Source: Magnetospirillum gryphiswaldense MSR-1 v2
GTDB lineage: Bacteria > Pseudomonadota > Alphaproteobacteria > Rhodospirillales > Magnetospirillaceae
Length of the DNA stretch: 64,000 bases
Assembly: GCF_000513295.1 (NCBI RefSeq)
Contig: NC_023065.1
Location: 4,155,001 to 4,219,000 of the forward strand
Reading direction: 5' to 3'
Notes under the pieces: generated by a model
The model's input: the letters and a program-made list of their open reading frames with translations, nothing else
Told to the model about the DNA's origin: nothing
The model's database searches: none
In this document: in pieces, positions 52,506-64,000 of the stretch
How the letters are laid out: each line of letters opens with the position of its first letter
Position numbering within the stretch: position 1 is the stretch's first letter
Program-made: the position numbers and the translations under genes

Positions 52506-53525
52506 TTACCCGGCATTTCCCGCATTCCGGCCGGTGGGGGCCAGCAAGGCCAGGAATTCGGCGCTGACACGCTCCCAAGAAAAGCGACAGGCATGGTCAC
52601 GGCATGACGCGGATGGAATGTCCAGGGCGGCCAGGGCGGCGGCCCGCAGGTCATGGTTCAGCACGCCGGCGGGGGAATCGCCGATCACGTCCAGCGGGCC
52701 GGGGACCGGAAAGGCCGCCACCGGCACGCCCGAGGCCAGGGCTTCCAGCATGACCAGTCCGAACGTGTCGGTTTTGGAGGGGAAGACGAAGCAATCGCCG
52801 GCGGCGAAATAGCGCGATAATTCGGCGTCGCCATTGGCGATGCGCCAGTGCACCTGGGGAAAGCGCTTCATCAGGCCGGCGCGGGCGGGGCCATCGCCGA
52901 CCACCATTTTCGAACCCGGCAGGTCCAGCGACAGAAACGCCGGCAGGTTTTTTTCCACCGCCACCCGGCCCACATAGAGGAAGAGGGGGCGCGGCAGATC
53001 GACGAAATCCTTGGCCTGGGGGTGGAAGGTGACGGCATCGACGCCGTGGCTCCATTCCACCGCATTGACGAAGCCCCATTCCGCCAATTCCCGCCGTACC
53101 GACGGCGATGGGCACATCACCGCCGCCGAGGGGGCGTGAAATCGCCGCATCAAGGCATAGGGCCAGGATAGCGGCACGCCGGTACGGGCGCGGACGTAAT
53201 GGGGAAACTTGGTGTGATAGGCGGTGGTGAAGGGCAGGCGCCGGTCCAGGCACCAGCGCCGCGCCGCCCAGCCCAACGGGCCTTCCGTCGCCAGATGGAT
53301 GGCGTCGGGGGCGAAATCGTGCAGGGCTTGACCAAGCCCGGCGGCGACGAATAGCGACAGCTTGATTTCCGGGTAGGACGGACACGGGATGGTCCTGAAT
53401 TGCCCTGGCTCGATCACCAATAGCTGGTGACCAAGGCGCTCCAGCTGGCCGCACAGACTGGCAAGGACGCGGACCACGCCGTTGCGTTGGGGGTGCCAGG
53501 CGTCGGTGACGATGGCGATGCGCAT
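52506..53525 (-). CDS. Glycosyltransferase family 4 protein (SQDG/mannosyltransferase-like)
   Basis: A 339-residue GT-B-fold glycosyltransferase. The N-terminal acceptor domain starts MRIAIVTDAWHPQRNGVVR. The C-terminal donor domain has FLYVGRVAVEKNLPAFL, the MVVGDGPAR loop and the E-x7-E-like FPSKTDTFGLVMLEALASG, resembling glycolipid glucosyl/mannosyltransferases. A role in glycolipid or envelope glycan synthesis is likely; donor and acceptor are not determined. ATG 53525 has a purine-rich site upstream. Divergent relation to none: murI upstream is in the same direction, 73 bases away with a GC hairpin (53563-53579) between. Confidence 0.87.
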   Translation of the reverse strand: MRIAIVTDAWHPQRNGVVRVLASLCGQLERLGHQLLVIEPGQFRTIPCPSYPEIKLSLFVAAGLGQALHDFAPDAIHLATEGPLGWAARRWCLDRRLPFTTAYHTKFPHYVRARTGVPLSWPYALMRRFHAPSAAVMCPSPSVRRELAEWGFVNAVEWSHGVDAVTFHPQAKDFVDLPRPLFLYVGRVAVEKNLPAFLSLDLPGSKMVVGDGPARAGLMKRFPQVHWRIANGDAELSRYFAAGDCFVFPSKTDTFGLVMLEALASGVPVAAFPVPGPLDVIGDSPAGVLNHDLRAAALAALDIPSASCRDHACRFSWERVSAEFLALLAPTGRNAGNAG

Positions 53526-54534: not shown

Positions 54535-54563
54535 TTGGCGGTTTTATGTAAATAGCCTATAAA
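54535..54563 (+). promoter_or_regulatory. Sigma-70-type promoter of the six-gene signalling operon
   Basis: TTGGCG (54535-54540), a 17-base spacer and TATAAA (54558-54563). A start near 54570 would give a leader of about 130 bases. It is the only good promoter seen between murI and the first operon gene. Confidence 0.6.
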
Positions 54564-54664
54564 TGTAGTTGGGGAAATGGCCGGTGCCGTGCATTGGTAT
54601 GGTTAGCGGAGTTGGGAGGCATGGTTTGTCTGGCTTGAGCGGGTCTCTGCATTGGTCAAGGGCG

Positions 54665-54686
54665 CGGCCCGCCACACAGCGGGCCG
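54665..54686 (+). promoter_or_regulatory. 8-bp leader hairpin next to the ribosome-binding site
   Basis: CGGCCCGC (54665-54672) and GCGGGCCG (54679-54686) with loop CACACA. The AGGGGG ribosome-binding site follows immediately at 54687. There is no T tract, so it is a possible translational control or transcript-stability element rather than a terminator. Confidence 0.45.
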
Positions 54687-54701
54687 AGGGGGCTTGATCC
54701 C

Positions 54702-55481
54702 ATGTCGTGGTCGTTGGCCCGCAAGGTATCCGCCGCGTTGATCGCCATTTTGGTGTGCACCATGATGGTGACGGCTCTGTTCGGCTTTTTCAAGTTCCAG
54801 GACGTGATGTCGGAGCTGGTGCGCTCCCGTTACAGCTTCGTCGCCTTCACCATCAAGCAGAAGGTGGAAGACAGTCTGAACCTGGGTTTCGCCCTGCGAC
54901 AATTACGTCAGGTGCAAGAAACCATCGAGCTGGAAAAAGCCCGTGACGAGCAGGTTCAGGGCATCGAGATTTATGACGCCAAGGGTGAAATTCTCTTCAA
55001 CAGCGACCGAGGCCGCATCGGCGCCTCGGTGCCGGAAAATTGGCTGTTGCCGTTGAGTCTCACCAATTTGCAGCCTTTCGCTTTCCTCGACGAGGATTCC
55101 AACGTCGTCGGCCTGCCCCTGGTCAACAGTCTGGGCAAGGTCGAAGGCGCGGTGGTGTTGCTTTATCCCACCGGCTATGTGGAGCGTGAATTGGGCCCCA
55201 TGCTGTGGCGTCTGGCCGGCGAGATCGCCGGGCTGGTGGTGGTGTTCAGTCTGCTGGCCGTGGTCGTGGCCAGCATCGCCCTGGGCGCGGTGCGCCGGCG
55301 CCTGCACGCCATGGAACATGCCCTGCTTCTGGCCCCGGGGGCCGAGGCGCCGCTGGATGATGTGGCGACGGTAAATGAATTCGACGGGCATTTCGGCGAG
55401 TTCGTCGCCAAGACCCGTGAAGCGGTTGAACATATCAAAGCGTCGACCGATGAAGTCGAACGCCTTGACCGGCTTGCGTGA
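54702..55481 (+). CDS. Membrane sensor protein without output domain (operon gene 1)
   Basis: A 259-residue protein: membrane helix at about residues 8-32, a periplasmic domain to about residue 165, a second helix near 170-198 and a cytoplasmic tail of about 60 residues that resembles a HAMP or linker helix (RRRLHAMEHALLLAPG) but carries no kinase, methyl-accepting or cyclase domain. The periplasmic part has a PAS/Cache-like strand motif (GIEIYDAKGEILFNSDRG). The same type of motif recurs in the sensor parts of genes 2 and 5 of this operon. ATG 54702 follows AGGGGG by 9 bases; gene 2 starts seven bases after its stop. Probably a signalling subunit for a neighbour. Confidence 0.75.
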   Translation: MSWSLARKVSAALIAILVCTMMVTALFGFFKFQDVMSELVRSRYSFVAFTIKQKVEDSLNLGFALRQLRQVQETIELEKARDEQVQGIEIYDAKGEILFNSDRGRIGASVPENWLLPLSLTNLQPFAFLDEDSNVVGLPLVNSLGKVEGAVVLLYPTGYVERELGPMLWRLAGEIAGLVVVFSLLAVVVASIALGAVRRRLHAMEHALLLAPGAEAPLDDVATVNEFDGHFGEFVAKTREAVEHIKASTDEVERLDRLA

Positions 55482-55488
55482 GGGGGCC

Positions 55489-57585
55489 ATGCGTCTCGAC
55501 TCGTCCCGCTCATTGTTGATCCGGTTGCTGATGCTGGCGGTGCTGGTGCTGGTGCCGCCCATGGTCATCGGTTCGTACCGGGCGCTCGATAGTTTCAAGC
55601 GGGGCTTGAGTCCGGAAATGGACCTGAAGGCCGCCGCCATCGCCCGCGATCTGGTGGCGCAACTGGAACGCGCCGTGGGCTTTGGCATTCCCGTCGATAA
55701 GCTGGTGGGGGTGGATGAATTCTTTGCCCAGGTGCTCAGTGCCAATCCGGAAATCCGTTATCTGGGGATCACCGATGCCAAGGGTGATATCCTGTTTTTG
55801 CGCGGGGCGCTGTCCGAGCAGTTGAACGACGCCTATCGCAGCCGCTCGGGCGCGGTGCTGGACGATACCGGATTGAAGGCGAACATCGCCGACTTCGTCG
55901 ATCTGGCTTTGCCCGTCCATGTGCGGGATGTCGCGGTGGCGCAGGTCCATGTGGGCTTTGATCAGGATTACGTCGCCACTCAGTTGTTCGGTATTTTCTA
56001 CGATATCGCCGTGGTGCTGGTGACGTCGCTGATCATCGCCTTCGAGGTTCTGCTGTTCGTGGTGGTGTTCAACGTTTCCGGCCCGATGAAACTGGTGGCC
56101 GAGGTGGTGGCCCAGGCCCGGCGCGGCGACTTCACCCGGGTGCCGGGGATCACCTCGTCCGACGAGGTGGGGCATTTCGTTCGTGTCTTCAACAGCGCCA
56201 TGCGCCAGGTCGATGGTGCCTATCGCGGCCTGATGGCCTATATCGATGAAGTGCGCAGCGGCCATTTTGATCGCGATGTGGCTGGTCAGGTGAGTGAGAT
56301 CGCCGATCGGGTGCGCTTCCTGTTCCGTTTCCATCCTTCGGGGGCGCCACAGGTCCTGCGCGAGAAACTGTCGTCGGACGTGCGGCTGCCGTTGTTCCTG
56401 TTTATCTTCGCCGAGGAGCTGAGCCGCGCCTTCATGCCGCTTTATGCCCAGGCCTTGCCGTCGCAGGCGGGCTGGCTGACGCCTGAAGTGCTGATGGCGC
56501 TGCCCATCGCCGTGTTCATGGCCGGTATCGCCGTGGGCTCGTTGTGGGCGGGGGCGGTGACCGAACGGCTGGGCAGCCGCAAGGTGTTCCAGTTCGGTCT
56601 GGCTCCGGCGGTGTTGGGCTGCGTCATGAGCGGGTTGGCCCAGGGCGTCGTTGAACTGAGCCTGTGGCGCGGCATCGCCGGCCTGGGCTATGCCCTGGTG
56701 ACGGTGGCCTGCCAAAGTTATATCTCGAAGACCACGGTGGACAGCAACCGCGCCACCGGTCTGGGCAGTTATGTCGGCGCGGTGCTGACAGCGGCCGTTT
56801 GCGGCACCGCCGCCGGCGGTGTGCTGGCCGAGCGCATCGGCTTCGCCCCCACCTTCTTCGTCTCCACCGTGTTGATCCTGGTGTCCGGCTGGCTGCTCAG
56901 CCATCTGCTGTCGGTGGTGGACCACGGTGCCCCGGTAGTGGCCCCGGTTCCGTCCGGTCGCCCGTTGCTACGCATCTTCGCCAATTGGCGGTTCACCGTC
57001 CTGGTACTGTTCGCCGCCATTCCGGCCAAGATGGCGCTGACCGGCTATTTCTTCTTCCTGGTACCGCTGACCTTGTGGAGTTCGGACCATTCCTTGGCCG
57101 AACTGGCCCGCATCATGGTGCTGTATCCCCTGGTCATGCTGGCGGTGTCGTCGCAATCGACCCGCCTGGCCGATCAGATAGGCTGGCGCATCGGTCAGGT
57201 GGCCCTGGGCGGGCTGATCGGCGGTGCCGGTATTTTGTCCATGCTGGCTTTCGACGGTACGCTGCCCTTGGTCATCGGCATCGTCTGTCTGGGTATTTCC
57301 CATGGCATGTCGGCATCGCCGCAATTGGCGGCCATTCCCGATATCTGCTGGATCGAATGCAATCGCCACGGTCGCACCCAGGTTCTGGCCTTGCTGCGCA
57401 CGCTGGAACGGGTGGGTTCGGTGATCGGTCCGTTGCTGGCCGCTGGCTTCCTGCTGCACTGGGGACCCAAGGGGGCGGTGATCGGTCTGGGGGCGGTGGT
57501 CCTGGTCATGGCTGCCATCTTCGCCATGGTCGCCGGCGCCTATGGCAGCGGCCCGCACCTGGAAACCGAGGAGGACGCCCCATGA
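55489..57585 (+). CDS. Sensor-HAMP domain fused to an MFS transporter (operon gene 2)
   Basis: A 698-residue fusion. Membrane helix about 8-29; periplasmic PAS/Cache-like domain to about 165 with YLGITDAKGDILFLRG; helix about 170-195; HAMP about 195-245 (GPMKLVAEVVAQARRGDF, SSDEVGHFVRVFNSAM). From about residue 300 an MFS-type bundle of about 12 helices follows, with a loop 2-3 motif (GSLWAGAVTERLGSRKVFQ) and its related second-half copy. HAMP normally leads into kinase or chemoreceptor outputs; joined to a transporter it suggests signal-gated transport or transport-coupled signalling. ATG 55489 has AGGGGG upstream. It overlaps gene 3 by ATGA. No frameshift at the junction: one continuous frame. 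Confidence 0.85.
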   Translation: MRLDSSRSLLIRLLMLAVLVLVPPMVIGSYRALDSFKRGLSPEMDLKAAAIARDLVAQLERAVGFGIPVDKLVGVDEFFAQVLSANPEIRYLGITDAKGDILFLRGALSEQLNDAYRSRSGAVLDDTGLKANIADFVDLALPVHVRDVAVAQVHVGFDQDYVATQLFGIFYDIAVVLVTSLIIAFEVLLFVVVFNVSGPMKLVAEVVAQARRGDFTRVPGITSSDEVGHFVRVFNSAMRQVDGAYRGLMAYIDEVRSGHFDRDVAGQVSEIADRVRFLFRFHPSGAPQVLREKLSSDVRLPLFLFIFAEELSRAFMPLYAQALPSQAGWLTPEVLMALPIAVFMAGIAVGSLWAGAVTERLGSRKVFQFGLAPAVLGCVMSGLAQGVVELSLWRGIAGLGYALVTVACQSYISKTTVDSNRATGLGSYVGAVLTAAVCGTAAGGVLAERIGFAPTFFVSTVLILVSGWLLSHLLSVVDHGAPVVAPVPSGRPLLRIFANWRFTVLVLFAAIPAKMALTGYFFFLVPLTLWSSDHSLAELARIMVLYPLVMLAVSSQSTRLADQIGWRIGQVALGGLIGGAGILSMLAFDGTLPLVIGIVCLGISHGMSASPQLAAIPDICWIECNRHGRTQVLALLRTLERVGSVIGPLLAAGFLLHWGPKGAVIGLGAVVLVMAAIFAMVAGAYGSGPHLETEEDAP

Positions 57586-58619
57586 TGATGCGCCGTGTGC
57601 TCCTGGGCGCCGCCCTGTCGGCGGCTGTGTTCGCCGCCCTGCCGGCCCAGGCCCAATCTCCGGGCCAATCTCCGGCCAAGCCCTATCGCATCTATATGGC
57701 GCTGTGGCGCGGCTGGGAAGATGCCGCCCAGGGCTTCAAGGACTACTTCACCAACCAGAACATTCCGGTCGAGCTGATCATCCGCGACGCCGGCCAGGAC
57801 CGGGCCAAGCTGCCGGAATTCGTGGCCGAGGCCAAGCAATTGGGTGTCGATCTGGTGTTCACCTGGGGCACCACGGTGACGGTGGACATGTTGGGCACCT
57901 ATGACAAGGTCGACCCGGCTAAGCACATCACCGATATTCCCGCCGTCTTCGCCATCGTGTCGCAGCCGGTGGGGGCCAAGGTGGTGCCCGATCTGGCGTC
58001 GTCGGGCCGCAATATCGCCGGCACCAGCTATCTGGTGCCCATGGATACCCAGGTAAACCTGCTGCAATCCTATCGTCAGGTGCGCAAATTGGGCATGGTT
58101 TACAATCCCTTGGAAAAGAACTCGCTGGTGGCCGCCGACGAATTGCGCGAACTGGGACGCAAGAACGGCTATGAGCTGGCGGTGGCCGCGGTGGACGTGG
58201 TCGATGGCAAGCCGGTGGTGGAAAGCATCGCCGGCAAGGTGCGCGACCTCAAGCAGGACGGGGTGGATTTTCTTTATATCCCCCCCGACACCTTCCTTAA
58301 CGTCAATCGCGACGTCCTGACCGGTGCCGCCTTGGCGGAAAAGATGCCCAGCTTCGCCGCCGCCGAAAACCCGGTACTGTCGTCCAAGGCCATGTTCGGC
58401 GGGGTCTATCGTTATTACACCGTCGGCCAACTGACCGCCTACAAGGCGGAACAGATCCTGGTCCACAAGAAGGCGCCGGCGGACCTGCCCATCGACCCGC
58501 CGCGGCGTCTGTCCATCATCATCAACATGCCGGTGGTGCGCGCGCTTGAATTCTATCCGCCCATGGGGCTGCTGAGCTTGGCCGAAGTGGTGGATAGCGG
58601 CGCCGAGGTCCGGCCATGA
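57582..58619 (+). CDS. Periplasmic substrate-binding protein, ABC_sub_bind type (operon gene 3)
   Basis: A 345-residue secreted protein with a signal peptide (residues 1-24, ending AQAQS). The mature part has the type I periplasmic-binding fold of the ABC_sub_bind (TrpX-like) family: PYRIYMALWRGWEDAAQGFK, LGVDLVFTWGTTVTVDM, KLGMVYNPLEKNSLVAADEL, FLYIPPDTFLNVNRD. No ABC permease or ATPase gene lies in the operon, so it more likely delivers a ligand to the sensor domains or to the MFS fusion. ATG 57582 overlaps gene 2; its stop overlaps gene 4 (ATGA). Ligand unknown; relatives bind tryptophan or other aromatic amino acids. Confidence 0.85.
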   Translation: MMMRRVLLGAALSAAVFAALPAQAQSPGQSPAKPYRIYMALWRGWEDAAQGFKDYFTNQNIPVELIIRDAGQDRAKLPEFVAEAKQLGVDLVFTWGTTVTVDMLGTYDKVDPAKHITDIPAVFAIVSQPVGAKVVPDLASSGRNIAGTSYLVPMDTQVNLLQSYRQVRKLGMVYNPLEKNSLVAADELRELGRKNGYELAVAAVDVVDGKPVVESIAGKVRDLKQDGVDFLYIPPDTFLNVNRDVLTGAALAEKMPSFAAAENPVLSSKAMFGGVYRYYTVGQLTAYKAEQILVHKKAPADLPIDPPRRLSIIINMPVVRALEFYPPMGLLSLAEVVDSGAEVRP

Positions 58620-59524
58620 ACAAGGAGCACACGCCGTTGCGGATCGTCATCTGCACCAAGCGCGATCTGGCCGGGGCGCTGATTCTCAATCAGCTGTTGC
58701 CGCGTCTGGGTGGCGACACGGTCATGGTGCTGCTGTCGGACAAGACCCGCCCGGTGGAACAGGCGGTGCCTGAACTGGCCGAGATGAAGTTTCTCGAGCG
58801 CGATTTGCCCATGGATACGCTGTTTCCGCTGATCGACCGCCTCGACGACGATGGCGCGCCGGCGGAGCTGGCCACCTTCGACGGGTTGGCGCAGCGCTTT
58901 GGCGTTCCCATCCAGGTGATCGGCGACATCAACGGCCCCGAGGGCGAAGAGATGTTGCGGCGCTTCGCCCCCGACATCATGTTGTCGGCGCGATTTTCGC
59001 TGATTTTCCGCCGTAATGTCTTCGATATCCCCCGCTTCGGCACCTATAACGTCCATCCTGGCGCCTTGCCGCGCTATGCCGGCCTGTTCGCGCCGTTCCG
59101 CTGCATGTTGGAAGGCGGTGATGCCATCGGCTGCACCCTGCACCGGGTGGATGACGGCATCGATACCGGCCCGGTGGTGGGGATCGGCTGGCTGCCAATC
59201 CAGGCGGAACGGTCCTTGCTGTGGCATGTGGTCAACACCTATGGCGCCGGCCTCGATCTGTTCATGACCGTCCTCGACGGTCTGCGCCAGGGTCAGGGCC
59301 CCGACTTGCAGGGTCAGGACCGCTCGCTGCGGGTTTACGGCAGCCTGCCGGGGCGTGAGGCCTTCGACGCCTTCCGCTCCAAGGGGTTGCGGCTGTACGA
59401 CCCACAGGAATACATGGACGTTCTGCGCCGTTTCATGCCGGCGGAGAGCGCCGTCCAATTGCAGGCCATCGCCGGAGCCGCGGCTGAAAAGGTGGGGGCG
59501 TCATGCTGCTGCGCACACGCGTAA
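58616..59524 (+). CDS. Formyltransferase-fold protein (operon gene 4)
   Basis: A 302-residue protein whose middle part matches the catalytic domain of 10-formyltetrahydrofolate-dependent formyltransferases. The catalytic Asn and His lie in YNVHPGALPRYAG, the aspartate in LHRVDDGIDTGPVVG. The N-terminal 80 residues differ from methionyl-tRNA formyltransferase and there is no Fmt C-terminal tRNA-binding domain, so it is not a housekeeping Fmt. The C-terminus has CCCAHA. The substrate is unknown; amino sugars or an amine ligand are possibilities. It overlaps gene 3 by four bases and gene 5 by 22 bases, so it is firmly part of the operon. Confidence 0.82.
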   Translation: MNKEHTPLRIVICTKRDLAGALILNQLLPRLGGDTVMVLLSDKTRPVEQAVPELAEMKFLERDLPMDTLFPLIDRLDDDGAPAELATFDGLAQRFGVPIQVIGDINGPEGEEMLRRFAPDIMLSARFSLIFRRNVFDIPRFGTYNVHPGALPRYAGLFAPFRCMLEGGDAIGCTLHRVDDGIDTGPVVGIGWLPIQAERSLLWHVVNTYGAGLDLFMTVLDGLRQGQGPDLQGQDRSLRVYGSLPGREAFDAFRSKGLRLYDPQEYMDVLRRFMPAESAVQLQAIAGAAAEKVGASCCCAHA

Positions 59525-62481
59525 CGCTGATCGTTTCCATAACCTATTCGCTGCTGGTCGCCGGCCTGACCTTCGCCGGCCTCAAAAGCGAGGAACTGGC
59601 CGATGAGCGCTATGCCCAGGCGACGCTGAACGGGCAGGAAATCTTCTGGCGCAAGCTGGTGGAAAACACCGTCCAGCGCCTGGAAACCGATGCCCGCGGC
59701 ATCGCCGGCAACATGCAGATCGTCACCGCGGTGGATCACCGCGACCCGGCCCAGACCCTGGTCCATATGGGGCCGCTGGCCGAGGCGATGAAGACGCGCG
59801 GCACCGTCAGCCGCCTGGAAATCCTGGACCGCGACGGCGAGCTTTTGTACAGCTCGCGCGGGTCTTTGCTGGAGCCGCCGATCCTGGACGCCGGCACCGT
59901 GCGTGCCATCGTCGATGGCAAGCGCCCGGTGCGCGGGGTGTTGCAGGACGCGTCGCGGACCTTCACCGCCACCTTGGCCTTTCCGTTGCAGATCGGCGGT
60001 GACGAAGTGGCCGGCATCGCCGTGCTGGCCGCCGACATGCAGCCGCCCTTGTCGGAGTTCCAGGCCTCCACCGGCTCGGACATCTTCCTGGTCGATCGCA
60101 ACGGTCATTTGGCCCAGGGCACCAACGATGCCCTGTGGTCGGTGTTCAACGGCAAGATCAGCGTGCGCAAAAGCCGTCTGCTGACCTGGGCCGAGGGCGA
60201 AAAGTACTATTCCGTCGTCGTCTTGCCGGTGCAGGACGGTTTCAATCGGGTCATCGGCGCCCTGGTCACCGCCAGGGACGTGTCGGAAACCCAGGCACGC
60301 CAACGCCTGATCCGGGTCATCGCCATCGGTGCCGTCATCGGCTTCCTGGTGCTGGTGCTGGGCATCTTCTACGTCTATCTGCGCCGGTCCTTCCATCCGC
60401 TCGACGAAGCCATCGCCGTGTTGAACGCGCTGTCGCGCGGCGATACCTCGGTGACCTTGGAAGTCAGGAACGACAAGGACGAAATCGGTCGCATCGCCGG
60501 CACCGTCGGCGTGTTCCGCGAAAACACCGTCAAGCTGGACCTGATGCAACAGCGGCGCGAACGCCAGCGCCGCCGGCAGGAATTGTTCATCCGCCTGCAG
60601 ATGCTGAAACTGTCGGAAATGCTGGAGGAAGAGGCCCGCGCCGCGATCTTGTCGGACATGAAGCAGATCGAGGCCATGGCCGAAAGGAAGGCCGGGTCCG
60701 AGGATGCCGCCGACAGCGGCAAGGGCGAGTTGGAAGTATTGGGCGTGGCCTTCCAGACCATGTCCGACCGCATCCGCGAACAGCACCTGTCGTTGGAAAC
60801 CCTGATCGCCGAACGTACGCGCGAGGCCGAGGTCTTGCGCGAAGCCCTGCGCACCCGCGACCAGTTGAACGCATTGCGGCAGGAACTGGATTTCGCCCGC
60901 GAACTGCAATTGTCGTCGCTGCCGCAGGTTTTCCCGCCCTTCCCCGACCGCGACGAATTCCAGATTCACGCCGCCATGGTTCCGGCCAAGGAAGTCGGCG
61001 GCGATTTCTACGATTTCTTCCTGCTCGATCATCATCATCTGGGCATCGTCATCGGCGACGCCTCGGGCAAGGGTGTGCCGGCGGCCATGTTCATCGCCAT
61101 CGCCCGCTCGCTGATCAAGGCGGTGGCGCCGCTGTCGCGCTCGCCCGGCGAGTGCCTGGCCTTCGTCAATACCATGTTGTCGGCGGACAATCCGCAGACC
61201 CTGTTCGCCACCTGCTTCTACGCGGTGGTCGACACCCGCTCGGGCGAGGTGGCCTTCTGCAATGCCGGCCATCCGCCGCCCCTGATCCTGCGCCAAGGTC
61301 AAAATGTGGACGCCATCCGCGATGTCTCGGGGGTCGCCTTAGGGGTGATGGAGGATCTGGAATACGATACCGGCACCTTCACCATCGCCCCCGATGATAC
61401 CATCGTGCTTTACACCGACGGCGTCACCGAGGCGCAAGACGTGTCCGAGACGCTGTATGACGAACCGCGACTGATCCAGACCCTGCGGGGCTTGGGCCCC
61501 ATTCACCCGGAACAGGTCATCGCCACCGTGCAGCGGGCGGTCGAGGCCTTTGTCGGCGACGCCCCGCAATTCGACGATATCACCATGCTGTCGCTGCGTT
61601 TCGACCGTGTCAGCGTTCATGACGGTGGCATCGAGACTCAGCAACGGCGATTGATGCTGACCGGCTTCCAGGGCAGTGGCGGCGAGGCGGTGCCCGAGCC
61701 CGTTTCCACACCATCTCCGACACCGCCGTCGACTCCGGTTCCGCCGCCAGCCCCCATCGCTGTCTCGGTGTCCGCCGTACGGGCGCCCGCCGCGCCGACG
61801 AACCCGCCGGCGAAGCGGCCCAGGATCATGGTCCAGCCGGTGTCGGCCCCGACCTCGGCCCCGGCCCCGACCCCGGCCCCGACCCCGACGGTCGCTCCCG
61901 CTCCCGCCAAGGCACCGGTGATGGCGGTTTCCACGGCCAAGCTGATCAAGACCGATGCGGCCAAGCCGGCGGTTGCGCCGGTGGTCAATGGCGCCAGCGT
62001 CACCAAGCGTCCTCGGGTGGTGATGCAGCCGCCGAAGCCCAAGCCCGTGCCGCATACCCGGCTGGAAGTGACGATTGCCAACGATCTGGATGAATTGGCG
62101 CGTCTGGCCGGTCTGGTCGATGAATTCGTCGAGCGCAACAGCATGCCGGAGCGAATTTCTTTCAATCTAAATCTGTGTTTGGACGAGTTGATCACCAATA
62201 TCGTCTCTTATGGCTACGAGGACGGCCACCACCACGATATCCACGTTAAATTCGCGCTGGACAATGGTCGTCTGATCACCGAAATCATCGACGACGGCAA
62301 AGAGTACAATCCCTTTACCGATGCCCCCGAACCCGATCTGGCCTTGGATGTGGACGACCGTCCCATCGGCGGATTGGGGGTATTCCTGGTCAAGGAATTC
62401 ATGGATCGCACCGATTACCGCCGCGAGGGCGGCACAAATATCGTGACGCTGGAAAAGAACGTCACCGAACAGGAGAGTTAA
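59503..62481 (+). CDS. Sensor-HAMP-SpoIIE phosphatase fused to an RsbW-like kinase domain (operon gene 5)
   Basis: A 992-residue membrane protein. Helix about 8-27; periplasmic Cache-like domain to about 265 (RLEILDRDGELLYSSRG); helix about 270-292; HAMP about 293-350; coiled coil; PP2C/SpoIIE phosphatase about 455-700 with all metal-site motifs (GGDFYD from residue 499, GDASGKGVPAAM, NAGHPPPL, LYTDGVTEA). A Pro/Ala/Thr-rich linker spans about 730-855, then an RsbW/SpoIIAB-type ATPase domain about 865-985 with N box Glu895...Asn899, DDGKEYNPF and GGLGVFL. So one chain holds both the phosphatase and the kinase of a partner switch. The STAS protein follows four bases later. Confidence 0.93.
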   Translation: MLLRTRVTLIVSITYSLLVAGLTFAGLKSEELADERYAQATLNGQEIFWRKLVENTVQRLETDARGIAGNMQIVTAVDHRDPAQTLVHMGPLAEAMKTRGTVSRLEILDRDGELLYSSRGSLLEPPILDAGTVRAIVDGKRPVRGVLQDASRTFTATLAFPLQIGGDEVAGIAVLAADMQPPLSEFQASTGSDIFLVDRNGHLAQGTNDALWSVFNGKISVRKSRLLTWAEGEKYYSVVVLPVQDGFNRVIGALVTARDVSETQARQRLIRVIAIGAVIGFLVLVLGIFYVYLRRSFHPLDEAIAVLNALSRGDTSVTLEVRNDKDEIGRIAGTVGVFRENTVKLDLMQQRRERQRRRQELFIRLQMLKLSEMLEEEARAAILSDMKQIEAMAERKAGSEDAADSGKGELEVLGVAFQTMSDRIREQHLSLETLIAERTREAEVLREALRTRDQLNALRQELDFARELQLSSLPQVFPPFPDRDEFQIHAAMVPAKEVGGDFYDFFLLDHHHLGIVIGDASGKGVPAAMFIAIARSLIKAVAPLSRSPGECLAFVNTMLSADNPQTLFATCFYAVVDTRSGEVAFCNAGHPPPLILRQGQNVDAIRDVSGVALGVMEDLEYDTGTFTIAPDDTIVLYTDGVTEAQDVSETLYDEPRLIQTLRGLGPIHPEQVIATVQRAVEAFVGDAPQFDDITMLSLRFDRVSVHDGGIETQQRRLMLTGFQGSGGEAVPEPVSTPSPTPPSTPVPPPAPIAVSVSAVRAPAAPTNPPAKRPRIMVQPVSAPTSAPAPTPAPTPTVAPAPAKAPVMAVSTAKLIKTDAAKPAVAPVVNGASVTKRPRVVMQPPKPKPVPHTRLEVTIANDLDELARLAGLVDEFVERNSMPERISFNLNLCLDELITNIVSYGYEDGHHHDIHVKFALDNGRLITEIIDDGKEYNPFTDAPEPDLALDVDDRPIGGLGVFLVKEFMDRTDYRREGGTNIVTLEKNVTEQES

Positions 62482-62485
62482 GGAA

Positions 62486-62812
62486 ATGGAGATTCGGGAA
62501 GACCAAGCTGATGGCGCGATAATTTTGGTTCCTGTCGCCCGTGTCGACAGTGCCACCGCCAAGGCTTTCGAGGTCCGGGTCCTCGCCGCCGTCAATTCCG
62601 GCGCGGGCAAGATCGTCATCGACTTCGCCGAGCTTGACTATATCTCCAGCGCCGGCCTGCGTGTCGTCCTGGTGGGGGCCAAGATGACCCGTGTCCCGCG
62701 TAAATTCGCCCTGTGCGGCATGAAGCCGCATATCCGCGAAATCTTCGATGTGTCCGGTTTTGCCCGCATCCTGACTATTCTGCCCGATCGCGCCGCTGCC
62801 TTGTCGGCATAG
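62486..62812 (+). CDS. STAS-domain anti-sigma factor antagonist (operon gene 6)
   Basis: A 108-residue SpoIIAA/RsbV-like protein. The phosphorylatable serine region is DYISSAGLRVVLVGAKM. The N-terminal strand pattern (AIILVPVARVDSATAKAFEV) and C-terminal helix (IREIFDVSGFARILTILP) complete the STAS fold. It should be the substrate of both activities of gene 5: phosphorylated by the RsbW-like domain and dephosphorylated by the SpoIIE domain. No sigma factor or separate anti-sigma factor is encoded in the operon, so the final target is elsewhere or is not a sigma factor. Last gene of the operon. Confidence 0.92.
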   Translation: MEIREDQADGAIILVPVARVDSATAKAFEVRVLAAVNSGAGKIVIDFAELDYISSAGLRVVLVGAKMTRVPRKFALCGMKPHIREIFDVSGFARILTILPDRAAALSA

Positions 62813-62917: not shown

Positions 62918-63151
62918 ATGGCCGATCCCTTCAAGGGCTTTACCGAATTCCAGGCCGCTTGGCTGAAAGCGTGGTCCCATTCGGCGCAGAACATGACCAC
63001 CATGCTGACCCACATGCTGGATATGCAGCAAAAATTTCTGAGCCACGCGGCCAAGTACCATCGCGATCATGTCGAAATCGCCACCGGTGCATCGCTGACC
63101 GACAAGTACGGGAAGCGCGCCCACGATATCGATCCCGAGCGGGACATTTAG
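62918..63151 (+). CDS. Small hypothetical protein, stop codon formed at the IS630 junction
   Basis: A 77-residue protein from ATG 62918 (GGGAGG 5 bases upstream). It is helical and amphipathic (FTEFQAAWLKAWSHSAQNMTT, MLDMQQKFLSHAAKYH) with a polar charged end (DKYGKRAHDIDPERDI). It loosely resembles phasin-like or small PHA-associated helices, but I do not assign it. The stop TAG consists of the TA target dinucleotide plus the first G of the IS element, so the original protein either ended here with TAA/TAG/TAT-type sequence or was longer. A short hairpin (62880-62892) precedes it. Confidence 0.6.
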   Translation: MADPFKGFTEFQAAWLKAWSHSAQNMTTMLTHMLDMQQKFLSHAAKYHRDHVEIATGASLTDKYGKRAHDIDPERDI

Positions 63152-63158
63152 AGCATTT

Positions 63159-63764
63159 TCACATCGAGCGTCCATATCCGTCGTGGGCGAAGAAATTGGC
63201 GCATTCCTCGGGCGGAAACAGGTCGATGAGTTTTCCGATCACGTCCCATAAGGTGTTGATGGTGCGGGCTTGCGCCTTTCGCAGCAGGCTCTTGAGCTTG
63301 GCGAAGGCGAGCTCGATGGGATTGAGGTCTGGGGAGTAGGGCGGCAGATACCGCAGGGTGGCCCCTCGGGCTTCGATGAGTTGCTTGACCCCTGCCACCT
63401 TGTGGGCGGGCAGATTGTCCATTACGACGATGTCGCCGGGCCGCAAGGTCGGAGCCAGGACCTGCTCGACATAGGCCAGGAAGATCGCGCCATTCATCGC
63501 CTTGTCGATGACGAAGGGGGCGGAGATTCCGTCATGCCGGAGCGCCCCGACGAAGGTGGTCATTTTCCAATGACCGTGCGGCACCGCAGCCAGCAGCCGC
63601 TGACCGCGCGGCGCCCGTCCGTAGCGCCGGGTCATGTTGGTCGATGCCCCGGTTTCATCAAGGAAGACCAAGCGGGTTGGGTCCAGCGCCGGCTGCTCGG
63701 CTCGCCAGGCGATGCGTCCTTCGGCTACGTCGGGACGTTCCTGCTCGGCAGCATGCGCACTCTT
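63159..63764 (-). CDS. IS630-type transposase, catalytic part (orfB, copy 2)
   Basis: The encoded residues from FLDETG to the C-terminus are identical to those of copy 1, including the DDE triad. It is entered by -1 frameshifting at the A7 run 63763-63769 and has no start of its own. Confidence 0.86.
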
Positions 63765-64000
63765 TTTTTCAGACTGAGGTCGAGCCGCTCAAGCGTGTTC
63801 CACAGGCCGCCGACGCTGATCGACACGCCCAATTCGGCCAGAACCCAGGCGCGCAACTCAGCCAGCGTGGCATCGGGCTCGACCTTGATCTGCGCCTGCA
63901 ACGCCTCAAGGTGAGCCGCCAGCTTCTGTCCTGGCCGCCCAGGCCGTGGCTTCACCGTCGTCTCGCCGGTGGCCCGGCGGCGGCCTTGGGCCTTGTAGAT
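63725..64000 (-). CDS. IS630-type transposase, DNA-binding part (orfA, copy 2, partial)
   Basis: C-terminal part of orfA, identical to copy 1 where present. By the 50,270-base offset its ATG would be at 64120, outside the window. Confidence 0.85.

What the first reader, a model, noticed from the sequence alone, without database searches (positions are those of the whole stretch)
54535..62812. Six-gene operon combining sensors, an MFS transporter, a binding protein, a formyltransferase and a partner switch
Seen: six plus-strand genes with gaps of at most seven bases or overlaps (55489 follows 55481 by 7; ATGA at 57582 and 58616; a 22-base overlap at 59503; 4 bases at 62486), one promoter and one leader hairpin. 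Known: SpoIIE/RsbW/STAS modules control sigma factors or other targets; ABC_sub_bind proteins bind aromatic-type ligands. Inference: a periplasmic binding protein presents a ligand to three membrane sensors; one gates an MFS carrier, another drives the SpoIIE/RsbW switch on the STAS protein, and a formyltransferase modifies the transported or signalling compound. I know no described system with this combination.
Basis: partly seen in the sequence, partly recalled or inferred. Interest (0 to 1): 0.9.

Follow-up and report, generated by a model that had tools for sequence, protein, structure and literature searches.

The report
Sensor-transporter operon with formylating enzyme
A conserved bacterial gene set joins a transporter-like sensor and a lone binding protein to an enzyme that probably tags a small molecule, and to an on/off protein switch; relatives swap the switch but tend to keep the enzyme matched to the sensor, which hints at an undescribed way of making or handling and sensing a small molecule.

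Summary
In 27 of 30 orthologous operons the order A(cache-like)–B(cache–MFS)–C(binding protein)–(D, formyltransferase FT)–E(SpoIIE/RsbW)–F(STAS) is intact; three are cut by contig ends. FT is missing in 6 of 30, broken in one, and in one genome survives alone at the same site. Outside the family the B–C core (A-like gene before B in 31 of 46 loci) recurs from Rhodospirillales to Vibrio and Nitratidesulfovibrio with other outputs: SpoIIE, histidine kinase, GGDEF–EAL, T6SS cluster, ECF sigma. In 32 of 46 loci a small-molecule enzyme sits beside it: FT, GNAT, ATP-grasp, GCS2 and others. Enzyme type follows sensor phylogeny (8 changes against 19 shuffled, 0 of 500); SpoIIE presence does not (119 of 500). 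In 20 new loci the nearest sensor predicted the enzyme 15 times: 14 of 14 at 40% identity or more, 1 of 6 below; 9 of the 20 are the reference rows' own genus. The MFS domain is exporter-like; C is the genome's only ABC_sub_bind protein. Best reading: ligand-handling sensor plus amine-modifying enzyme driving a partner switch. Ligand and transport direction are unknown. The leader hairpin is not above chance.

The parts
54535..54565 (+). putative sigma-70-like promoter (TTGGCG-17-TATAAA) shared by the operon
   Evidence: Conserved block in the 5 upstream regions aligned; no plus-strand hit in the consensus scan.
54702..55481 (+). gene A: membrane protein, helix - probable single Cache/PAS-like domain - helix - cytoplasmic helix (259 aa)
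   Evidence: No Pfam match above threshold; AF2 model poor (pLDDT 57), weak Foldseek matches to WalK, KinD, DcuS, CitA sensor domains; an A-like gene stands directly before B in 31 of 46 loci outside the family.
55489..57585 (+). gene B: Cache-HAMP-MFS fusion (698 aa), exporter-like MFS domain
   Evidence: Pfam MFS_1; Cache and HAMP sub-threshold; PDB profile hits led by NorA, then EmrB, VMAT, MdfA, with a weaker one to an L-lactate transporter; acidic residue in what I take as the first MFS helix in 44 of 46 rows, window included.
57582..58619 (+). gene C: orphan ABC_sub_bind (TrpX-like) binding protein; N-terminus looks like a signal peptide (by eye)
   Evidence: Pfam 85 bits; NCBIfam TrpX 87.8 bits against cut-off 390; only PF04392 match in the genome.
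58616..59524 (+). gene D: formyltransferase (FT), N145/H147/D183 conserved; accessory
   Evidence: Formyl_trans_N; these columns invariant in the 10 rows aligned; Foldseek Met-tRNA formyltransferase 1fmt TM 0.58; lost in 6 of 30 operons.
59503..62481 (+). gene E: dCache-HAMP-SpoIIE PP2C phosphatase-RsbW-like HATPase kinase fusion (992 aa)
   Evidence: Pfam; PP2C motifs and the kinase N-box and GGLG motifs invariant in the 7 rows aligned; the DDG motif keeps both D but its G varies.
62486..62812 (+). gene F: STAS protein, candidate phospho-serine S54/S55 in DYISSAGL
   Evidence: Pfam STAS; YISSAGLR invariant in the 11 rows aligned.

Best explanation
The operon is a ligand-handling sensory module wired to a partner switch. 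C, a periplasmic binding protein with no ABC transporter genes beside it, binds an amino-acid-like (amine-bearing) small molecule and reports it to the A/B membrane pair; B couples a Cache-HAMP sensor to an MFS carrier that most likely exports the compound or its modified form. The accessory enzyme (here an N-formyltransferase, elsewhere an acetyltransferase or an ATP-dependent ligase) modifies the same compound. Occupancy is passed to E, whose phosphatase and kinase domains set the phosphorylation of the STAS protein F, and F controls a target outside the operon. SHOWN here: gene order and its conservation, the recurrent core, the enzyme slot and its match to sensor phylogeny, interchangeable outputs, conserved catalytic motifs. 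INFERRED: ligand class, export direction, physical coupling of C to A/B, FT substrate, signal flow to E, and F's target.
For: Order kept in 27 of 30 orthologous operons, other 3 contig-cut. Among the neighbouring genes (6 before, 7 after B) a C-type gene is found in 42 of 46 first-set and 25 of 28 second-set loci. An enzyme lies near the core in 32 of 46 first-set loci. Enzyme type on the B tree: 8 changes, shuffle mean 19.1, 0 of 500 as low; on the C tree 9 against 19.1, 0 of 500; SpoIIE presence 11 against 12.4 (119 of 500) and 12 against 12.1 (291 of 500). FT orthologues (E below 1e-40): 25 of 99 relatives, 24 of them in the operon, one of these broken; in 289 class genomes three, the window's own and two others, all beside the core. 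C is the only ABC_sub_bind match in the genome. B's MFS domain matches drug and amine exporters best. Amino-compound enzymes occur beside or downstream of some cores: alanine racemase (L109), ATP-grasp after GNAT (L089, L100, L102), class III aminotransferase and PALP enzyme (L136). E and F motifs conserved.
Against: FT is dispensable: missing in 6 of 30 operons, and alone without A, B, C, E, F at the syntenic site of G016, so it may have its own job. A glycosyltransferase gene lies beyond murI on the FT side of the locus and stays with FT in G016, which favours a sugar substrate. Enzyme prediction from the nearest sensor failed in 5 of 6 new loci below 40% identity (a line drawn after seeing the data), and L134, predicted FT, shows none in its short contig. 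Ten uncut loci of 46 have no such enzyme (L048, L058, L088, L090, L091, L107, L116, L117, L118, L120). RraA-like, HMGL-like and ketopantoate-transferase-like neighbours are not amine acylators. B also has weaker matches to importers (L-lactate, aromatic acid symporters). A is not found before B in 15 of 46 loci. No ligand, transport, phosphorylation or transcript data. Cache/HAMP in B are sub-threshold and A's fold is unsure.
Confidence: 0.42

Rival explanations
1. Nutrient or toxin sensing only: C and A/B sense an external compound, and the enzyme detoxifies or assimilates it inside the cell; nothing is made for signalling. GNAT and FT would inactivate an amine toxin, and the carrier would pump it out.
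For: The MFS domain is nearest to drug efflux carriers; GNATs often inactivate amines (general knowledge); FT-only survival in G016 fits a stand-alone role.
Against: ATP-grasp, GCS2, racemase and aminotransferase neighbours look more biosynthetic than detoxifying; T6SS clusters as neighbours do not fit simple detoxification.
Confidence: 0.27
2. The enzyme is an output, not part of ligand handling: FT N-formylates a surface sugar or another cell component, and the partner switch senses envelope or carbon state as SiaABCD does.
For: FT resembles ArnA, WbkC and other sugar N-formyltransferases as well as Met-tRNA formyltransferase; a family 4 glycosyltransferase gene (52506-53525) lies beyond murI and is kept in most relatives and in G016; E is a distant match to SiaA (84 bits against cut-off 700).
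Against: The enzyme follows the sensor core phylogeny while SpoIIE does not; no amino-sugar synthesis gene was seen among the genes scanned next to the operon.
Confidence: 0.18
3. C and B form a binding-protein-dependent MFS importer, analogous to TRAP transporters, with sensing secondary.
For: Stable B-C pairing, no ABC genes in the operon, weaker B matches to importers.
Against: Best matches of the MFS domain are exporters; a binding-protein-dependent MFS importer is not known to me (recall).
Confidence: 0.08
4. Historical linkage: the genes are neighbours by inheritance at a fixed murI site and are not one functional unit.
For: The operon sits at one syntenic place beside murI throughout the family where the contig reaches.
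Against: Order kept at 47-95% identity of B with overlapping genes; the core and an enzyme recur together at other places in other families.
Confidence: 0.05

Closest known systems
SiaABCD partner switch of Pseudomonas aeruginosa (PMC7647112, abstract and outline seen)
   Same: Membrane PP2C phosphatase and a kinase set the phosphorylation of an anti-sigma-antagonist-like protein.
   Different: Here phosphatase and kinase are fused in E, F is a classical STAS, no diguanylate cyclase is in the operon, and an A-B-C front end plus FT is attached; E scores 84 bits against the SiaA cut-off of 700.
RsbU/RsbW/RsbV and SpoIIE/SpoIIAB/SpoIIAA modules (recalled)
   Same: SpoIIE, HATPase_c_2 and STAS domains with conserved motifs.
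   Different: No sigma factor among the window's six genes; one relative (L129) has an ECF sigma gene beside the core.
CbrA and UhpC/UhpB type transporter-sensors (CbrA PMC7096432, abstract and outline seen; UhpC recalled)
   Same: A transporter-family domain used in sensing and fused to or paired with signalling domains.
   Different: CbrA is an SLC5-kinase fusion; here an MFS domain carries an N-terminal Cache-HAMP and is paired with a binding protein and an enzyme.
TrpX binding proteins of tryptophan ABC transporters (PMC9382623, search listing and start of abstract)
   Same: C belongs to the ABC_sub_bind family, nearest NCBIfam model TrpX.
   Different: 87.8 bits against cut-off 390; no ABC permease or ATPase gene in the operon.
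Met-tRNA and sugar N-formyltransferases (FMT, ArnA, WlaRD, WbkC)
   Same: Fold and catalytic N-H-D residues (the triad is recalled).
   Different: 16-24% identity in the 50 structural matches listed; Formyl_trans_N covers residues 110-198 only; this subfamily is found beside the sensor core in 24 of 25 relatives that have it.

Membership tests
SpoIIE/RsbW/STAS partner switch | PP2C phosphatase motifs GGDFYD, GDASGKG, DD | tested here: met
   Invariant in the 7 rows given of 30 operons.
SpoIIE/RsbW/STAS partner switch | GHKL kinase N-box, DxG, GxG motifs | tested here: met
   LDELITNIV and GGLGVFLV invariant in 7 of 7; in IIDDGKEYNP both D invariant, the G of DDG variable.
SpoIIE/RsbW/STAS partner switch | STAS protein with phospho-acceptor Ser | tested here: met
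   YISSAGLR invariant in the 11 rows given; phosphorylation itself not testable.
SpoIIE/RsbW/STAS partner switch | cognate sigma factor or other target | tested here: inconclusive
   None among the six genes or the flanking murI and 77-aa genes; a target in trans was not searched.
SiaABCD | SiaA equivalog score | tested here: not met
   84 bits, cut-off 700.
SiaABCD | SiaD diguanylate cyclase in the operon | tested here: not met
   No GGDEF match in the six genes or the two flanking genes scanned.
ABC transporter (TrpXYZ type) | TrpX equivalog score | tested here: not met
   87.8 bits, cut-off 390.
ABC transporter (TrpXYZ type) | permease and ATPase genes adjacent | tested here: not met
   Absent among the eight genes scanned; the rest of the genome was not searched for them.
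methionyl-tRNA formyltransferase | TIGR00460 score | tested here: not met
   42 bits, cut-off 201.5.
10-formyl-THF N-formyltransferase superfamily | N-H-D catalytic residues | tested here: met
   N145, H147, D183 invariant in 10 of 10; L149's FT-like protein lacks the N.
DHA1-type MFS exporter | profile similarity to drug/amine exporters | tested here: met
   NorA, EmrB, VMAT, MdfA hits lead; weaker importer matches exist.
DHA1-type MFS exporter | antiport of a compound | not testable with these tools
   Needs transport assay.
quorum-sensing type signalling | the cell makes, releases and responds to the same molecule | not testable with these tools
   Only gene linkage bears on it.

The most novel reading that the evidence does not exclude
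A-B-C plus its slot enzyme is a cell-cell or self-signalling device of a kind not described before: the enzyme caps an amino-acid-like precursor (formyl, acetyl, peptide or gamma-glutamyl bond), the sensory MFS exports it, the orphan binding protein reads the returning molecule, and the read-out is plugged into whatever output the lineage owns (partner switch, two-component, c-di-GMP, ECF sigma, T6SS). FT-less operons would be eavesdroppers.
Probability: 0.2. Interest if true: 0.92.

Novelty: new variant of a known kind. Interest (0 to 1): 0.7.

Why it matters
The output half is a known partner switch, but the front end (sensory MFS, orphan binding protein, matched small-molecule enzyme) recurs across Pseudomonadota and on a Nitratidesulfovibrio plasmid with swapped outputs, and in the lists returned by ten full-text searches no title or abstract describes it (only the top 8-20 of each list are shown). 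If the enzyme makes or tunes the ligand, each lineage's enzyme type tells what chemistry the sensor reads, which makes the long-standing question of unknown sensor ligands directly testable for this family.

Tried and rejected
Leader hairpin: no better than shuffles. Cys-rich FT tail (CCCAHA): looked like a metal site, but it falls in the 22-base overlap with the start of E (read), so I take it as a by-product. Gene A structure: model too poor to use. Viral contigs: a pattern scan with B found no relative; megablast of the operon found no plasmid match. SpoIIE as the constant partner of the core: rejected, its presence does not follow the core's tree. 'Family' labels on the tree were mostly single-member and say little.

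Limits of the counts. Enzyme labels were given after looking at the first 46 loci; the second set of 28 was classified by HMMs built from the first. L062 was fetched but has no B and was left out; near-duplicate rows L056, L102, L117, L120 and six extra rows of the window's family were left out of the label counts. Nine of the 20 second-set loci with an enzyme are of genus g45, which is also the genus of the reference rows L050 and L119 that predicted them; without them 6 of 11 were right. The A label comes from an iterated profile that also hits other Cache-HAMP proteins. The phylum and order searches scored only the best few candidates per genome, so their tallies are lower bounds.
Full report
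OBSERVATION. The six plus-strand genes and all stated spacings are exact. Pfam gives MFS_1 for B, ABC_sub_bind for C, Formyl_trans_N for D, SpoIIE + HATPase_c_2 + HAMP for E, STAS for F; A passes no family, and the Cache and HAMP parts of B are below the curated cut-offs. A TTGGCG-17-TATAAA block is conserved in the 5 upstream regions aligned, though the simple scan lists no plus-strand promoter. The leader folds no better than shuffles.

CONSERVATION IN THE FAMILY. B has an orthologue (47% identity or more) in 30 of 99 genomes searched, the window's own included. In 27 of 30 the order A-B-C-(D)-E-F is complete; the other three (G012, G003, G021) are split or cut by contig ends (loci L039-L047 and L063-L087). 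Two E genes whose kinase part gave no tblastn piece (L073, L082) do carry it. murI lies upstream wherever the contig reaches, a glycosyltransferase gene beyond it in most, and a conserved 77-aa gene follows F in 24 of 30, window included. FT is missing in 6 of 30 (G053, G048, G043, G040, G045, G049) and broken by an internal deletion in G054; a B tree gives three changes of FT presence with unresolved forks, so one to three losses. In G016 the same site holds FT alone, with A, B, C, E and F gone. FT orthologues below E 1e-40 occur in 25 of 99 relatives, 24 of them in the operon, and in 3 of 289 class genomes (own, G372, G256), all beside the core: directly upstream of A in L098 and convergent with E in L105. 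So this FT subfamily is nearly confined to this neighbourhood, yet neither it nor the rest strictly needs the other.

THE CORE ELSEWHERE. Searches with B gave matches at E 1e-20 in 26 of 289 class genomes and 10 of 398 phylum genomes (lower bounds) and matches on Azospirillum, Vibrio and Nitratidesulfovibrio plasmids. I examined 46 loci with B outside the window's operon type (L048-L061, L088-L092, L096-L122; L062 had no B). An A-like gene stands directly before B in 31 of 46; it is not found in, for example, the ATP-grasp and GCS2 groups. A C-type gene is among the neighbours in 42 of 46. An enzyme lies near the core in 32 of 46: GNAT, FT, D-Ala-D-Ala-ligase-like ATP-grasp, GCS2, ketopantoate-transferase-like, RraA-like, HMGL-like; of the 14 without, 4 are contig-cut. 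GNAT assignment of several proteins (L052, L100, L108, L119) rests on homology to L055, L089 and L121, which pass the Pfam cut-off, not on their own Pfam score. Outputs near the core differ: SpoIIE in 14 of 46, with or without HATPase and STAS; histidine kinase and response regulator (L061); GGDEF-EAL (L122); T6SS genes (L088, L092, L116, L117, L118, L120). In the second set L129 has an ECF sigma gene beside the core.

ENZYME FOLLOWS SENSOR, SPOIIE DOES NOT. On a 52-row B tree, 31 labelled rows need 8 changes of enzyme type; shuffled labels need 19.1 on average, minimum 16, 0 of 500 as low. SpoIIE presence needs 11 against 12.4 (119 of 500). On the C tree the figures are 9 against 19.1 (0 of 500) and 12 against 12.1 (291 of 500); with loci lacking an enzyme added as a state, B 12 against 25.4 and C 13 against 24.2, 0 of 500 each. 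Labels were given after inspection. A second set of 28 loci came from an order-wide search of 317 genomes, 76 with B at E 1e-25, and was classified by HMMs from the first set: 20 have an enzyme, and the nearest labelled sensor predicted it in 15; 14 of 14 at 40% identity or more, 1 of 6 below, a line drawn after seeing the data. Nine of the 20 are genus g45, also the genus of the rows that predicted them; without these 6 of 11 were right. L134, predicted FT, shows none on its short contig. So swaps happen at depth, but enzyme and sensor go together at closer range.

PARTS. C is the only ABC_sub_bind match in the genome. B's MFS domain is closest in the PDB to NorA, then EmrB, VMAT and MdfA, with weaker importer matches; 44 of 46 rows, window included, keep an acidic residue in what I take as the first MFS helix. 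FT keeps N145, H147 and D183 in 10 of 10 rows; its model (pLDDT 79.5) matches Met-tRNA formyltransferase, TM 0.58, and sugar formyltransferases next. E and F keep nearly all catalytic and acceptor motifs in the 7 and 11 rows aligned. A's model is poor.

MECHANISM. I read this as a sensor that handles an amine-type ligand: C binds, A/B sense and B probably exports, FT caps the compound, and E/F relay by a partner switch. Gene architecture, linkage statistics and motifs are shown; ligand, direction, substrate and target are inferred. A self-made signal is the boldest reading not excluded; FT loss in six operons and FT alone in G016, beside murI and a glycosyltransferase, argue against FT as sole ligand source and keep a sugar substrate open.

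NOVELTY. In ten full-text searches no listed title or abstract describes this combination; lists were capped and the library lacks most subscription papers. SiaABC (PMC7647112) and CbrA (PMC7096432) were seen as abstract and outline, PMC10924467 as passages only, and it is unrelated. UhpC, the Rsb/SpoIIA modules, the FT triad and typical roles of DHA1 and GNAT proteins are recalled.

Noticed in passing
window 62918-63151 (+): A conserved 77-aa gene follows the operon in 24 of 30 relatives, window included, and stays beside FT in G016 where the rest is gone; no Pfam family.
   Followed up: partly
window 52506-53525 (-): A family 4 glycosyltransferase gene beyond murI, kept in most relatives and in G016; it may bear on the FT substrate.
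   Followed up: partly
window 63159-63671 and 63725-64000 (-): A DDE_3 transposase ORF and a second ORF that may be its other half (not searched).
   Followed up: partly
L088, L092, L116, L117, L118, L120: The sensory-MFS/binding-protein pair sits inside or beside type VI secretion genes in Vibrio and other Pseudomonadota, once with an ATP-grasp gene.
   Followed up: partly
L129:11592-12158: ECF sigma factor gene directly after A-B-C, with SpoIIE upstream: a candidate output target.
   Followed up: no
L135, L136: A-B-C-GNAT-SpoIIE followed by a PALP enzyme, and in L136 also a class III aminotransferase; in L135 the PALP frame runs on into an IS66 transposase match.
   Followed up: no
L149:7711-8550: FT-like gene convergent with a distant B-C pair, but the catalytic Asn is replaced by Gly.
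   Followed up: partly
L077, L079: Gene A gives two pieces in different frames (from the coordinates).
   Followed up: no
L039: A contig titled 'Stygiobacter' carries an operon 92-95% identical to the window's; probably a mislabelled MAG.
   Followed up: no
L054, L057: RraA-like and 2-hydroxyacid dehydrogenase genes precede A-B-C in two relatives.
   Followed up: no
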